A stretch of 64,000 nucleotides of DNA from Henckelia pumila. Its lineage: Eukaryota > Streptophyta > Magnoliopsida > Lamiales > Gesneriaceae. Each line of letters starts with the position of its first letter. Position 1 is the first letter of the stretch. Below the pieces are notes generated by a model. It had not been told where the DNA came from and did not search any database. It saw nothing but the letters and a program-made list of their open reading frames with translations. The DNA lies in contig NC_133123.1 in the NCBI RefSeq assembly GCF_033568475.1, positions 18,152,622 to 18,216,621 on the forward strand. The letters run 5' to 3'. Made by a program: the position numbers and the translations under genes. Positions 32,901 to 42,922 of the stretch are shown here, piece by piece.

Positions 32901-32909
32901 GATTGTTTT
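32901..32909. repeat. 9-bp target duplication, left copy
   Basis: GATTGTTTT directly before GGGTAAATTGC. The identical 9-mer stands at 42829-42837 directly after the inverted end. Nine base pairs is typical of Mutator-like transposons. Confidence 0.8.
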
Positions 32910-33129
32910 GGGTAAATTGCTTATAAATCCCTAAACTTATAATCAACTTATTTATAAATTCCTATCTAATTAAAACTTAGTTTTCACTCTCTAGAGAGAA
33001 ACTTTTTTCACAAATCCCCAATATACCCTTATATTTAACAAAAAAAAAAAATGAGAGAATGAAAAATAAAAACAAAACTAATCCAAATAGTATATATATA
33101 AAAATTCAAATTAAAATCAAAGAACATAA

Positions 33130-35050
33130 ACCATATCATATACATGCTTATGTTGATACAGGAGCAAGTATGTGTTTAGGAAGCAAACATATACTTCCAA
33201 ATCATTATTGGAAAAAATACGATAAATGATTAAAAGTTCGAATAGGAGATGGATCAATAATCATGCTTGATACAATAGCATAAAAATTAAAAATAGAAAT
33301 TGAGGAAACAAAATTTGTAATACCCATTATATACCAAATAGAATCAGGAATGGACATTATAATATGAAATAATTTTTTAAGAGAATATCTTCCTTTTACA
33401 CAATTTTAAAATCACATAACTTTAAACAAATGATCATCAATGATTTACATTCCTAAAATGCGAACAACATTTCGTGTAGGAAATGAAGGATTTACAAAGA
33501 ATTTTCATAAACGAAATACAAATCCAATAGAACTAAAAATAGAAAATATTTTAACTATTAATCCTGAAAAAGAAATCATGAAGAAATTTCATGATATTTG
33601 TTCTGAAAATCCTCAGGACAAAATTAAGAAAAGAAAACAAGTCATTGCTTCAATAAAACTCAAAGACCCTAATATCACAATTCGTGAAGCACCAAGAAGA
33701 TGTAACATGGATGATGTAAAAATATTTGAAAAAGAGGTTCAAGAATTATTAAAACTTAAGATAATCATTCTTAGTAAGAGTCCACACTCTTCACCAGTCT
33801 TTTATGTCAGTAAGAAAGATACTGATAAGAAAAAAATGATAATTGATTATCGAAAAATAAATAAAGCAACAATTATGGACGGATATTATATCCCAAATAA
33901 GAATGATTTACTATCTTATATAGGAGAAATGAAATATTTTTCCAGTCTAAATTGAAAATCAGGATTCTGGAAAATTCAGCTAGAACCACAAACACAATTA
34001 CTTACAGCATTCAGTTGTCCAAAAGGACACTATCAATAGACTGTATTATCTTTCGGACTCAAACAAGCACCAGGTATCTTTCAAAGATATATGGATGAAT
34101 CTTTTAAATCATATGTAGATTTTTGTTGTGTTTATATAGATGACATATTAATTTATTCAAAAACACTAGATCAACATTATAAAGACCTCATGACAGTATT
34201 AGATATTTGTCATAAAGATGGAATTGTACTTTCTGAAAATAAAGTACAATTGTTTAAAACAAAAATAAATTATTTAGGATTACAAATAGAAGATGGAAAA
34301 CATTGTTTACAACAACATATACTTAAAAAAATTCATGATTTTTCTAGTGAAATCAAAGATAAAGATCAATTAAGAAGATTTCTAGGATTATTAACTTATT
34401 CTGGAAATTACATTAAGAAACTTGCAGAAATCAGAAAACCTCTTCAGACAAAACTTAAACAGGACTATAAGTGGAAATGGTCTAAAGAAGATACTAATTA
34501 TATAGACACTATTAAAAAGAAAATAATTAGTAATCTTCTTGAGTTATATTTTTCTTCTAATAAAGACATAATAATAATTGAAACCGACGCTTCAGATGAA
34601 TACTGGGGAGCATTGTTAAAAGCTTATACAGGAGAAAAAAATTTAGAAGAACTTACTAAGACAGCTACCAGGAATAATGAAGAATTATGTAATTATACAT
34701 CAGGAACTTTTCAAGGTGCACAACTAAATTATCATTCAAATAAAAAAAAATTATTAGCTTTAATATTTACAATTAGAACTTATGCAATTTACCTTATCTC
34801 TAAACCATTTCTAGTAAGAACCGATAATATGAATTTAACATATTTCAAGACAAGGAAAATATCAAGAAATGCAGGGAGAAATTCAGCAAGGTTAATTAGA
34901 TGGCAATTGGAATTGAACCATTATCAGTTCGAAATCCAGCATGTCAATGGAACGGATAATTCATTACCCGACGCATTAACCAGAGAACTTCATCCAAATT
35001 ATACTATCCGTAGTAACAAAATAACAAAGGAGATCCTAAGTGATCCATAA
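33130..35050 (+). pseudogene. Pararetroviral protease-RT-RNase H (ORF V type)
   Basis: The aspartic protease segment has VDTGAS at about 33152-33170, followed by several stops up to 33435. The RT begins in the ORF at 33440-33955 and, after two further stops (about 33954 and 34038), continues in 34091-35050. CVYIDDILIYSK carries the catalytic YxDD at about 34130-34160. RNase H has IIETDASDEYWG and ends with NSLPDALTRE. Loss is by point stops and not by large deletion; several fit TGG to TGA or TAG. It starts directly next to the left inverted-repeat end. Confidence 0.9.
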
Positions 35051-35058
35051 AATGACTG

Positions 35059-35240
35059 CGAGTCATCCGAACATGCCTTAGAAAGCATGGGGAATATAAA
35101 TTGATAAAATGATATTTATATTCAGAAACATGAATTATTTTATGACTTCAAGTCATCCGAACATGCCTCAGAAAGCATGGGGAATATAAATTGATGAAAT
35201 GAAATTTATATTCAGAAACATGAATTACTCTATGAGTAAA
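35059..35240. repeat. 90-bp tandem duplication in the viral intergenic region
   Basis: Two copies of a roughly 80-90 bp block (AGTCATCCGAACATGCC at 35061 and 35151, each followed by GAAAGCATGGGGAATATAAA) between the polymerase stop and the transactivator-like ORF. An AT/GTATAT microsatellite follows at about 35356-35419. Confidence 0.9.
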
Positions 35241-35355
35241 ATAATCAATCTCATAAAAATTGGTTCAATTCTTGCAAAAGAATTCATAAATGCAATGATA
35301 CGCATAATATAACTATCCGAATTACTCACGATAAAGAGTTAAATTTCTAACCATT

Positions 35356-35418
<63 letters not shown>

Positions 35419-35419
35419 G
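35356..35419. repeat. (AT)n microsatellite in the viral copy
   Basis: Near-perfect TA repeats with two GTATA interruptions just before the start of the next viral ORF. Confidence 0.95.
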
Positions 35420-40086: not shown

Positions 40087-40186
40087 TCTGTACCAAGAAG
40101 ATCGTTATCATTTGCTAGAAATGATTAAGATATTCTTGAGAAGATTGGAACCATGAATCAAAATATTCTAAAAATTAAACAAGCTA

Positions 40187-40504
40187 TTGTTAATGAGTCA
40201 ACCTCATCGCAATGACGTCCTTAATAAAATTAGAAAAGATCTAGGAGATTTAGAAAATAACATTAATAAGATCAATCTAACAATACAAAAATTAGAGAAA
40301 AATTTCAAAGAATATATTGATTTAGCAACAACTAGATTAATAATTGAACAAGAAAGACATAGTAATAAAATATTAAACTATCTTAAGGAAGTTCTTCCAA
40401 TAGATAAAGGAAAAAGAAAAATGGAGGAAGAACCACCATTCAAAATCGAATCATGGTATAGAAATCCCCTTAGTTATGGAAAACATAAGTATGGAGATGT
40501 TTAG
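40187..40504 (+). pseudogene. Virion-associated-like coiled-coil ORF
   Basis: About 105 codons, the first two thirds a strong predicted coiled coil (LGDLENNINKINLTIQKLEK), then a short basic tail. Size, position before the coat protein and coiled coil fit the virion-associated (ORF III) protein of caulimoviruses. Identification by context. Confidence 0.5.
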
Positions 40505-41684
40505 TGAAACAGACCAATCTGATTTTGAACAAATAGGAGTAAATACAGAAGAATTATATCATTCACATCAGGAATCAGAACAACACAGAGATATGGATAT
40601 TTCAGAATCAGCATCCGAAGATAATTCTAGACCACGATTAAATCTACGAACGAATGTAGAAGGTAGTGGCGGAAGAGATGATGAAGAATATAAATATAAC
40701 AGAGACCAATATTCTGGATCTTATAAAGATGTTAGAGATATTCTTAGAGAATCAAAAACATCAGGATTTGTGAAACAAAATATTTTAGATTTAAGCTGTT
40801 CAACAGCTAAAGAAAGAAAATCAAAGATAGATCATTGGGCAAATGAACTATCAATCAGTACAAATTCAATTAACACCATTATTAGATAAAAGTGAGAATA
40901 TTCAAGTTTTAACTCATGGGATGATAAAAATGACATTGATAGGAGCAGTAAGAACGTGGGCTGAAAATCTAGTAATTACTAATCTAGCACAAGGAATGAC
41001 ATGACATCGATATTTTGAACTATTTATTGATGCCTTGTACCAATAATTTTTGGGAGTTTCTAATAATGATGCTAATCTGGTAGCCAAAAACATAGAACAA
41101 AATAGAGCAATTTTTATTCTGGATAATATAAAATTATGTAATTTATGTTATCTAGAAGAATTAATATGTGATTATGAAACAAACTATTATCAGTTAATAG
41201 AAGCTGATAAAAAAAAACATTATAAATTAAGTATTTTTAATAAAATACCTAATATACTAATAAATATTAAAGATGAATTCTTAACTAGCGCTTATGCTAA
41301 AACACTAGGAGGAGCTATTAAATTTATTAAAGATATTATAACAAAGAAATGTCATGAAGTAACATTAAATAAAAGAATATCCAAATCTTACAAAAAAAAC
41401 AATAAACTCTATTGTGACAAAATAGAATTCACAGTAAAAGAATATGGTTGTAAAACAAACATGTCACACAACCATTTAAAACGACAGAAACAAAATAAAT
41501 TTAATAAACCTTATAAATCTTTTAATAAGAAATTTATTCCCTATAAAAAAAAGAAATTTAAAAGAAATTTCTTCAGAAAACCTTATAAAAGAAATTTTAT
41601 AAAAAATTTGATAATAAAAAACCAATTTACCCAAAAAGTAAGGGAAAGAACTGCACATGTTGGTTGTGCAATGAAGAAGGTTAT

Positions 41685-42063
41685 TGTGACGCCCGGGGCT
41701 GAAGAGGCAGAGAGTGATCGCCGGTGCCAAGAGGTTGCACGGACAATGAGCGGCTCCTGGTAGGCTTCTAGGCGGAGGGAGACATGAATGAACCGATCCC
41801 GTGCCGGAATGAGAGGGATTCTGAGACTGTGTAGGTATGGGACTACATGGTTGAGGATGGCTTAAAAGATTTCATATGTAATATTCATATCAAGAAGGTG
41901 CATCTTCTTTTCAGAAGCTCATCACATAAGAACTCCAAAGTTAAGCGTGCTTGACTTGGGGCAATTATAGGATGGGTGACCCCCTGGGAAGTTTTCCAGG
42001 GTCCGTGTGAGTGAGGACATAAGCACGCTGAAAAGACCCGTCTTGATACAGTGGGGCGTTACA
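41685..42063 (+). repeat. Cassandra 5' LTR with 5S rRNA-like domain
   Basis: About 41921-42000 carries AACTCCAAAGTTAAGCGTGC and GGATGGGTGACCCCCTGGGA, close to the A-box to C-box internal promoter of plant 5S rRNA genes. RNA polymerase III transcription is the accepted idea for this family. Confidence 0.9.
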
Positions 42064-42133
42064 AATGGTATCAAAGCCGACCTCTCTTAGTACGGTATGG
42101 TTCGGGGACGAACCAAGCGGAAGCTGGTGGGCA

Positions 42134-42511
42134 TGTGACGCCCGGGGCTGAAGAGGCAGAGAGTGATCGCCGGTGCCAAGAGGTTGCACGGACAATGAGC
42201 GGCTCCTGGTAGGCTTCTAGGCGGAGGGAGACATGAATGAACCGATCCCGTGCCGGAATGAGAGGGATTCTGAGACTGTGTAGGTATGGGACTACATGGT
42301 TGAGGATGACTTAAAAGATTTCATATGTAATATTCATATCAAGAAGGTGCATCTTCTTTTCAGAAGCTCATCACATAAGAACTCCAAAGTTAAGCGTGCT
42401 TGACTTGGGGCAATTATAGGATGGGTGACCCCCTGGGAAGTTTTCCAGGGTCCGTGTGAGTGAGGACATAAGCACGCTGAAAAGCCCGTCTTGATACAGT
42501 GGGACGTTACA
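42134..42511 (+). repeat. Cassandra 3' LTR with 5S rRNA-like domain
   Basis: Near-identical copy of 41685-42063. Visible differences: GGATGACTTAAAAG for GGATGGCTTAAAAG, one base missing in AAAAGCCCGTC, and GGGACGTTACA for GGGGCGTTACA. 5S-like part at about 42369-42449. Confidence 0.9.
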
Positions 42512-42922
42512 AATATGCAAATGAATGTCCAAAACGAAATGAAAAGAAAAACAAAATTAAACTTTTAGAAGAATTATACACTCTTGGATTTTATCCAGTA
42601 GAAACAATTGAATGTTTATCAGAAGATGAAAATATTTATTATCTTGATGAATCAAGTAAATCAGATTTTGAATTCGATTCCACATTTGAAAAATAATAAT
42701 GATAATGATTAAATTAAGAACAAGGGCATTTTTGGAATAATTTATAGGGAGTTGAAACAAAGTTTAAATCAACTAGGGAGTAAACACAAAGTTAAGTTTG
42801 GCCTTGGGGAGTAATTTGTAAGTTGCCCGATTGTTTTATGTGCTCAGACATTTTTTATCCATAAATACTTATCCAAAAAAAATATGTATATTATCGATAT
42901 TACACATATAATTCTGTAATAT

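What the first reader, a model, noticed from the sequence alone, without database searches (positions are those of the whole stretch)
32901..42837. A whole pararetrovirus genome unit framed by Mutator-type inverted ends
Seen: a perfect 9-bp duplication GATTGTTTT flanks inverted ends (GGGTAAATTGC and GGGCAACTTAC) with similarity running about 120 bp inwards. Between them lies almost exactly one caulimovirid genome (about 7.5 kb after removing two later insertions), opened at the coat protein/protease junction, both genes directly abutting the inverted ends. Inference: either the viral circle integrated once into a short MITE, or a Mutator-like transposon captured a viral genome and could move it. 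The second would be a new way for an endogenous pararetrovirus to spread.
Basis: partly seen in the sequence, partly recalled or inferred. Interest (0 to 1): 0.88.

Follow-up and report, generated by a model that had tools for sequence, protein, structure and literature searches.

The report
Pararetrovirus mobilised by Mutator-type ends
A plant genome carries hundreds of copies of one virus genome, each cut at the same point and bounded by the ends of a jumping gene, which suggests that this virus spread through the chromosomes by borrowing a transposon's insertion machinery.

Summary
In the host genome (885 Mb; probably Gesneriaceae) the chimera of Mutator-type inverted end plus pararetrovirus is a dispersed family. 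A left-end pattern occurs at 574 places (control 11), a right-end pattern at 390 (control 7), an internal pol pattern at 530 (control 1). The 30 left ends read start at the same base. Of 20 end pairs readable at both ends, 10 carry identical 9-bp duplications and 14 match at 8 or 9 positions (mismatched control 1 and 10 of 380). Element length peaks at 7.6-7.75 kb. All 20 type-B ends sampled lead into viral protease.

Private mutations are neutral. Old shared mutations in pol and CP are depleted of amino-acid changes; divergent CP and MP lineages, all from TIR-bounded copies, point the same way. Two TIR types sit on one viral interior. The TIRs therefore probably travelled with a replicating pararetrovirus lineage, inserted by a host MULE transposase acting in trans. 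The transposase and any episome are inferred, not seen. The latest burst is a star with no selection signal. Closest analogue: Teratorn.

The parts
32901..32909 (.). left 9-bp target-site duplication GATTGTTTT
   Evidence: exact repeat at 42829
32910..33030 (+). left terminal inverted repeat, type A (GGGTAAATTGC...)
   Evidence: same start base in copies L009-L038; 574 genome places for the A/B pattern
33080..35050 (+). viral POL: protease, reverse transcriptase, RNase H; interrupted by in-frame stops
   Evidence: Pfam PF02160, PF00078, PF17917, PF17919; one continuous frame from 33443 to 34999 by tblastn
35052..35231 (+). two tandem copies of a 90-nt repeat after POL, 92% alike
35425..36375 (+). 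ORF region downstream of POL, at the usual place of a transactivator gene; no convincing Pfam match, identity inferred from position only
36376..37691 (.). later insertion: solo LTR flanked by 5-bp CAATC duplication (36371-36375, 37692-37696)
38066..38097 (+). TATA-like CTATAAAAGG and downstream AATAAA (motif meaning recalled): probable promoter and poly(A) signal
   Evidence: read
38734..38744 (+). TGATATCAAAG, 2 mismatches to the (recalled) tRNA-Met primer-binding motif TGGTATCAGAG; such matches are not above chance in the window (19 vs 15.6), placed by position only
39254..40086 (+). viral movement protein (frame broken)
   Evidence: Pfam PF01107, E 7.8e-18 and 1.1e-10
40172..40504 (+). small ORF between MP and CP
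40404..41684 (+). viral coat protein, first part (broken)
   Evidence: Caulimovir_coat_dom 26 bits, E 1.2e-5, just under cut-off; aligned in 29 other copies
41685..42514 (.). later insertion: TRIM-like element with two LTRs, 2 differences in 378
42515..42699 (+). coat protein, last part
   Evidence: tblastn to other copies
42708..42828 (-). right terminal inverted repeat, type A (GGGCAACTTAC...)
   Evidence: 390 genome places for the A/B pattern
42829..42837 (.). right 9-bp target-site duplication GATTGTTTT

Best explanation
This is one copy of a large family in which a complete caulimovirid-type genome, opened at one fixed point between CP and POL, is bounded by long Mutator-type terminal inverted repeats (TIRs) and inserted at many unrelated sites with 9-bp duplications. 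SHOWN: fixed ends, different target sites, 9-bp duplications, a unit length of about 7.7 kb, hundreds of places, virus behind every end sampled. SHOWN in samples: mutations private to a copy are neutral, while shared mutations in pol and CP, mostly on old branches, spare the protein; divergent coat and movement protein lineages exist inside TIR-bounded copies. INFERRED: the TIRs were a resident part of a replicating pararetrovirus lineage, probably tip to tip between CP and POL in its circular DNA, and a host MULE transposase acting in trans recognised them and inserted the viral DNA into chromosomes. Inserted copies then decayed. No transposase was found among the element's ORFs.
For: 1) Left-end query (TIR + protease): 40 scored of 585 candidates, all 40 contiguous across the TIR/virus border, 89-100%; right-end query (TIR + CP): 40 scored of 537, 38 reaching the tip region and 2 starting 47 bp in, 84-100%. 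2) The 30 left loci begin at the same TIR base (L017, L018, L035, L038 with changed tip letters); only L012/L013 share the flank at the insertion. 3) Of 34 end combinations tried, 20 had both ends readable: 9-bp flanks match 9/9 in 10 and at least 8/9 in 14; in 380 mismatched pairings 1 and 10. 4) Counts: left TIR 574 vs control 11, right TIR 390 vs 7, pol 26-mer 530 vs 1. 5) The 100 listed left and 100 listed right ends give 32 correctly facing pairs within 40 kb; 12 of 32 are 7.62-7.75 kb. 6) 20 of 20 sampled type-B ends run into viral protease. 7) Codon test pol+CP: private N:S 354:118, shared 104:85, p = 1e-6; wrong frames p = 0.77 and 0.56; transversions alone p = 6e-5. 8) Second MP lineage (2 of 16 pieces): 53-59% aa identity, dS 0.7-2.6, dN/dS 0.15-0.42. 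CP main vs second group: pN/pS 0.39, against 0.50 and 0.56 within groups. 9) Type-B copies keep a main-type CP (91.7-93.3%) and nearly the same POL (2 near-fixed differences) but differ at both TIRs together; of 42 pairs with both types known, 17 A/A, 25 B/B, none mixed. 10) The genome holds many MULE transposase domains (150 scored of 1188 candidates) and a 325-bp MITE with the same 11-bp tip and a perfect 9-bp duplication.
Against: No tip-to-tip TIR junction was found in the genome (0 exact matches with spacers of 0-30 bases), so the supposed circular form is not seen even as a concatemer; mutated tips would be missed. Within the recent burst the selection signal vanishes: CP main copies only, 27:13 shared vs 145:69 private, p = 1; pol in 12 A copies, shared 46 N:10 S against private 137:33. 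(An 18-copy pol subset holding both TIR types keeps it, p = 0.0022.) That burst is a star whose shared variants are mostly transitions (55 of 61) and no more compatible with a tree than random sets, so it does not say whether a virus or a single chromosomal master was the source. The CP contrast between and within groups (0.39 vs 0.50/0.56) is modest, and in MP the within-main comparisons scatter from 0.08 to 1.1 on few changes. Six of 20 end pairs match at 7/9 or fewer positions. No autonomous MULE with these long TIRs was identified. Eight stop positions are shared by at least 3 copies (partly alignment artefacts in L029 and L031), so recurrent mutation, or some copying of broken copies, occurred.
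Confidence: 0.65

Rival explanations
1. Plain Pack-MULE-like capture: a viral genome integrated once inside a MULE or MITE, and thereafter the element moved only as DNA, by host transposase, with the virus as dead cargo.
For: Fixed TIRs, 9-bp duplications, no transposase found inside, MULE transposases in the genome. The recent burst shows no selection signal, as this model predicts.
Against: Shared variants in POL+CP are depleted of amino-acid changes (p = 1e-6, wrong frames null). MP lineages inside the family diverged at dN/dS 0.15-0.42, CP groups at pN/pS 0.39. Dead cargo would not be expected to show this.
Confidence: 0.18
2. Chromosomal TIR elements were refreshed again and again by recombination or gene conversion with infecting related viruses, so the TIRs stayed in the chromosome and only the interior evolved as a virus.
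For: Two TIR types with one interior, and one right-TIR type with two CP groups; the selection signal sits mainly on deep branches.
Against: The internal pol count (530) is close to the left-TIR count (574), so no large pool of TIR-free copies is apparent. Conversion would have to end at the same borders while the two ends stay matched in type.
Confidence: 0.11
3. The element uses some other integrating enzyme (its own or an unknown one) that happens to make 9-bp duplications.
For: No MULE with these long TIRs was found.
Against: No integrase or transposase domain in the 12 element ORF pieces scanned. The GGGTAAATTGC tip with a 9-bp duplication also bounds a 325-bp MITE in the same genome.
Confidence: 0.04
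4. Single integration of a viral circle into one short MITE, or copies made only by segmental duplication.
For: One pair of copies (L012/L013) does share 1.5 kb of flank at 98%.
Against: Hundreds of places, and among the copies read different sites with their own 9-bp duplications; no empty end in the 20 sampled.
Confidence: 0.01

Closest known systems
Teratorn (piggyBac transposon fused with an alloherpesvirus in fish; PMC5601938: abstract and section list seen; PMC10175614: passages and the whole of section 10 read)
   Same: A whole virus genome enclosed by DNA-transposon ends, multicopy, with intact viral genes at some time; a shift towards an intragenomic way of life.
   Different: Teratorn belongs to piggyBac and is a 180-kb herpesvirus-derived element that retains transposition activity. 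Here a small reverse-transcribing plant virus has Mutator-type ends, no transposase found inside and 9-bp duplications. The review calls Teratorn the first example of fusion of a cut-and-paste transposon with a DNA virus.
Endogenous caulimovirids / pararetroviruses (review PMC10377300: abstract, passages and the whole of sections 3.1 and 3.2 read)
   Same: Gene set and order of a caulimovirid; degraded, dispersed copies in a plant genome.
   Different: [quoted passage not shown] Here copies have fixed ends, TIRs and 9-bp duplications.
Pack-MULEs and non-autonomous Mutator-like elements (general knowledge; only listings and abstract starts seen)
   Same: Long TIRs, 9-bp duplications, no transposase, foreign sequence between the ends.
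   Different: The cargo is a whole virus genome that was apparently under selection, not host gene fragments.
LTR retrotransposons / endogenous retroviruses (general knowledge)
   Same: Reverse-transcribing genome with chromosomal copies.
   Different: No LTRs at the ends, no integrase found; inverted, not direct, terminal repeats; 9-bp target duplication.

Membership tests
Caulimoviridae (endogenous member) | Aspartic protease of type A3, RT and RNase H in one POL frame | tested here: met
   Pfam PF02160, PF00078, PF17917, PF17919; one frame
Caulimoviridae (endogenous member) | 30K-type movement protein and coat protein, in caulimovirid gene order when read as a circle | tested here: met
   PF01107 strong; coat domain 26 bits, 1 bit under its cut-off
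Caulimoviridae (endogenous member) | Circular double-stranded DNA episome | not testable with these tools
   only chromosomal copies available; no tip-to-tip junction found in the genome
Mutator-like element (MULE), non-autonomous | 9-bp target-site duplication | tested here: met
   10 of 20 end pairs 9/9, 14 of 20 at least 8/9, control 1 and 10 of 380
Mutator-like element (MULE), non-autonomous | long TIRs with fixed tips | tested here: met
   about 130 bp in the window copy
Mutator-like element (MULE), non-autonomous | mobilised by a MURA/MULE transposase | tested here: inconclusive
   150 of 1188 candidate MULE transposase domains scored in the genome, over the cut-off, but none linked to these TIRs
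Autonomous MULE | transposase encoded within the element | tested here: not met
   no such domain in the 12 element ORF pieces scanned with Pfam
MITE | short (under about 600 bp) element without coding content | tested here: not met
   12 of 32 pairs at 7.62-7.75 kb
Teratorn-like element | transposon with its own transposase fused to a virus genome | tested here: not met
   no transposase found inside
LTR retrotransposon / retrovirus | LTRs and integrase | tested here: not met
   no long direct terminal repeats; no integrase domain among ORF pieces scanned

The most novel reading that the evidence does not exclude
A pararetrovirus lineage made a pair of host Mutator-type inverted repeats a permanent part of its circular genome, tip to tip between CP and POL, and so used the host's MULE transposase as its integrase. 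This gave a virus family that has no integrase a regular proviral, transposon-like stage, kept through the divergence of several viral strains and exchanged among them as a cassette.
Probability: 0.5. Interest if true: 0.96.

Novelty: new variant of a known kind. Interest (0 to 1): 0.9.

Why it matters
How caulimovirid DNA gets into plant chromosomes and becomes abundant there is described as speculative (PMC10377300, section 3.1) and unknown (PMC10175614, section 10). Here is a family with a defined border, a defined target duplication and hundreds of copies, so a mechanism can be tested directly. It would be the first case known to us of a reverse-transcribing virus, and of a plant virus, joined to a cut-and-paste DNA transposon. 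That statement rests on nine searches of the held open library, judged from titles and abstract starts apart from the three papers named above. It would also show that the life-cycle shift proposed for Teratorn can happen without bringing a transposase along: two short ends suffice if the host supplies the enzyme.

Tried and rejected
Single integration into a MITE, and segmental duplication: rejected on counts and duplications. Ends found mostly without virus: rejected for the 20 sampled ends. Among 8 loci from the short 11-mer search, 1 belonged to the family, 1 was an unrelated 325-bp MITE with the same tip and a 9-bp duplication, and for the other 6 no second end was found within the 1.5 kb held. 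Divergent POL lineages: of 7 left copies with masked stretches, 5 break off at what look like nested insertions and 2 (L024, L036) carry internal gaps; none is a diverged POL. Selection inside the recent burst: none found. MP piece among main copies (14 sequences): private 35 N:10 S, shared 10 N:6 S, too few to decide. Tip-to-tip junctions: none. IMG/VR gave 6 pattern matches, not inspected, about the number I would expect by chance (own estimate), and no relative of the RT. Rfam gathering search found nothing in 30001-46000, so the 5S-like look of the TRIM (recalled Cassandra type) is unconfirmed. The empty-site search with the window copy's joined flanks did not complete. The content of the 858-bp element at G000:C1:172967767 could not be read. 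A first pairing with only 71 of 100 listed ends on each side was biased by my choice of entries and was replaced by the full lists: same 32 pairs, but also 3 back-to-back neighbours.

Rows dropped before counts: L013 (duplicate of L012) from the pol tests; the window copy (insertion in CP) from the CP test; badly aligned stretches of L011, L019, L024, L025, L029, L031, L036 (pol) and L047, L049, L050, L053, L059, L064, L068 (CP) masked; in the MP test L118 (not MP) left out, L120 and L125 set apart as the second lineage; of 34 end combinations, 14 had no readable partner end (11 right zones without the end, counting L018 tried with a wrong partner, L025 with a cut right tip, and 2 left zones without the end) and are not among the 20.

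
Full report
WHAT IS IN THE WINDOW. GATTGTTTT stands at 32901-32909 and 42829-42837; the inverted tips GGGTAAATTGC and GGGCAACTTAC start just inside, and similarity runs about 130 bp inwards (score 59 against a maximum of 45 in 500 shuffles of the left end). Between them are caulimovirid genes in the order POL (protease, RT, RNase H), downstream ORFs, promoter-like region, MP, small ORF, CP, so the viral circle is opened between CP and POL. 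The copy is broken by in-frame stops, frame changes, a solo LTR with CAATC duplication and a young TRIM-like insertion. By arithmetic the element without the two insertions is about 7.77 kb.

IT IS A FAMILY. The host genome is held (G000, 884.7 Mb, 133 contigs; the window is C4:18152622-18216621). A query of the left TIR plus protease gave 40 scored of 585 candidates, and all 40 match across the TIR/virus border. A query of the right TIR plus CP gave 40 scored of 537: 38 reach the tip or within a few bases of it, 2 start 47 bases in. Whole-genome pattern counts: left TIR 574 (control 11), right TIR 390 (control 7), an internal pol 26-mer 530 (control 1). The patterns allow 3 mismatches, so more decayed copies are missed. 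Of 57 exact pol places listed on C1, 25 have a listed left TIR 692-782 bp away, 16 a listed right TIR and 33 one or the other; the TIR lists used hold only the best matches (left 0-1 mismatch, right 0), so 24 of 57 remain undecided.

IT MOVES LIKE A TRANSPOSON. The 30 left-end loci start at the same base (four with changed tip letters) with different, A+T-rich flanks; L012 and L013 share the whole 1.5-kb flank, and L017 and L036 share a 324-bp repeat at different distances from the element. Of 34 end combinations tried, 20 had both ends readable: the flanking 9-mers are identical in 10, differ at one position in 4, at two in 1 and at more in 5. In 380 mismatched pairings 1 is identical and 10 match at 8 or more. 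The 100 listed left and 100 listed right ends give 32 correctly facing pairs within 40 kb, and besides these 3 back-to-back neighbours and no pair with a wrong orientation; lengths cluster at 7.62-7.75 kb (12) and 6.41-6.48 kb (4), with one of 7.49 kb, 14 of 11.7-27.5 kb (presumably with nested insertions) and one of 858 bp. In a sample of 20 zero-mismatch type-B left ends from C1 and C2 (the first 20 not already known), 20 of 20 run into viral protease at 95-98% over 108 to 208 bases, each with its own 9-mer. A 325-bp MITE with the same 11-bp tip and a perfect 9-bp duplication lies elsewhere in the genome, and MULE transposase domains abound (150 scored of 1188 candidates, over the cut-off). 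Together these point to Mutator-type transposition.

THE VIRUS WAS PROBABLY ALIVE WHILE IT CARRIED THE ENDS. In 29 copies of a protease-RT piece, variants found in a single copy have N/S near the neutral expectation (transitions 2.32 vs 2.07, transversions 6.83 vs 6.75), whereas variants shared by three or more copies have N/S 1.21 (p = 0.00018). In CP (29 copies, 404 codons) the contrast is 2.77 against 1.23 (p = 0.0023). Pooled p = 1e-6 in the true frame, 0.77 and 0.56 in the two wrong frames, and 6e-5 with transversions only. Among 16 MP pieces, 13 are about 95% like the window, 1 is not MP, and 2 (L120, L125) form a second lineage, 72-73% in DNA where they align, 53-59% in protein, with dN/dS 0.15-0.42 (two main copies compared with the window as control give 0.08-1.1 on few changes). 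These two copies also belong to a second CP group, about 88% like the main one; pN/pS is 0.39 between groups against 0.50 within the main and 0.56 within the second group, so the added divergence is about 0.36. All these divergent forms carry the family's right TIR.

LIMITS OF THAT TEST. The signal sits on deep branches. In CP of the main group alone it is absent (27:13 shared vs 145:69 private, p = 1), and it is absent in 12 closely related type-A POL copies (46:10 shared vs 137:33), while an 18-copy POL subset with both TIR types keeps it (p = 0.0022). In the 12 copies the shared variants are 55 of 61 transitions and no more compatible with a tree than random sets (0.59 vs 0.61), so that burst looks like a star of independent insertions from one near-uniform source. 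A star does not tell a viral population from a single chromosomal master.

TWO SETS OF ENDS ON ONE VIRUS. Type A and type B differ along the left TIR and along the outer part of the right TIR, and the two ends go together: of 42 pairs with both types known, 17 are A/A and 25 B/B, none mixed (20; 23, one of them in both). A-type pairs came largely from queries with A-type ends, which could hide some mixed pairs. Yet POL shows only 2 near-fixed A/B differences and the tree mixes the types, and CP of 3 type-B copies is 91.7-93.3% like the main group. Replacing both ends at once is simplest if they were neighbours, as in a circle joined between CP and POL; in a linear chromosomal copy two events would be needed. 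This is an inference: no tip-to-tip junction was found in the genome.

MECHANISM. I think most likely that a pararetrovirus lineage acquired Mutator-type TIRs, replicated with them as a virus, and was inserted repeatedly by a host MULE transposase. Pure DNA-level spread of dead cargo does not explain the selection on old branches, but may have contributed to the last burst.

NOVELTY. Nine literature searches in the held open library listed no title or abstract that reports a caulimovirid bounded by DNA-transposon ends; most listed papers were not opened, and subscription papers and preprints are mostly not held. The closest case is Teratorn. The field's review lists break repair and LTR-retrotransposon machinery as the two widely held routes and notes a suggestion of a hijacked transposon-derived integrase, whose reference I did not see.

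HOST. A neighbouring gene is 76% identical to a Primulina tabacum protein, so the plant is probably a member of Gesneriaceae; the species was not identified.

Noticed in passing
L008 (G000:C1:71690855-71693865), element from about 1501 on the matched strand: A 325-bp MITE with tip GGGTAAATTGCATATATCAC and perfect 9-bp duplication TAAACTATT: an unrelated Mutator-type family sharing the first 11 bases with the viral element.
   Followed up: partly
G000:C1:172967767-172968624: A left and a right TIR of the family only 858 bp apart: either an internally deleted virus element or an empty MITE-like form.
   Followed up: no
pairs of 6407, 6436, 6445 and 6481 bp: A second length class about 1.25 kb shorter than the main one, perhaps a deletion derivative that itself spread.
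   Followed up: no
L120 and L125 (MP pieces of copies L051 and L060): A second movement-protein lineage, as far apart as different viruses, within elements whose CP is 88% like the main group: recombination or very uneven rates.
   Followed up: partly
window 41685-42514: TRIM-like element with two LTRs differing at 2 of 378 positions and a 5S-gene-like stretch (recalled Cassandra type; Rfam gave no hit), inserted in CP.
   Followed up: partly
window 35052-35231: Two tandem 90-nt repeats (92%) directly after POL, followed by a (TA)n run at about 35353-35422.
   Followed up: no
window 3814-7942, 54503-59090 (-), 61682-63664: ORFs that look like Ty3/gypsy (two) and copia (one) retrotransposons around the locus; judged by eye from translations only.
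   Followed up: no
L012 and L013 (G000:C4:121.9 Mb and 121.7 Mb): Two copies in opposite orientation sharing 1.5 kb of flank at 98%: a segmental duplication that includes the element.
   Followed up: partly
G000:C3:24724275-24806341: Three type-B elements in a row within about 82 kb, two of them with ends about 23.0 kb apart: possibly a tandem duplication of one locus.
   Followed up: no
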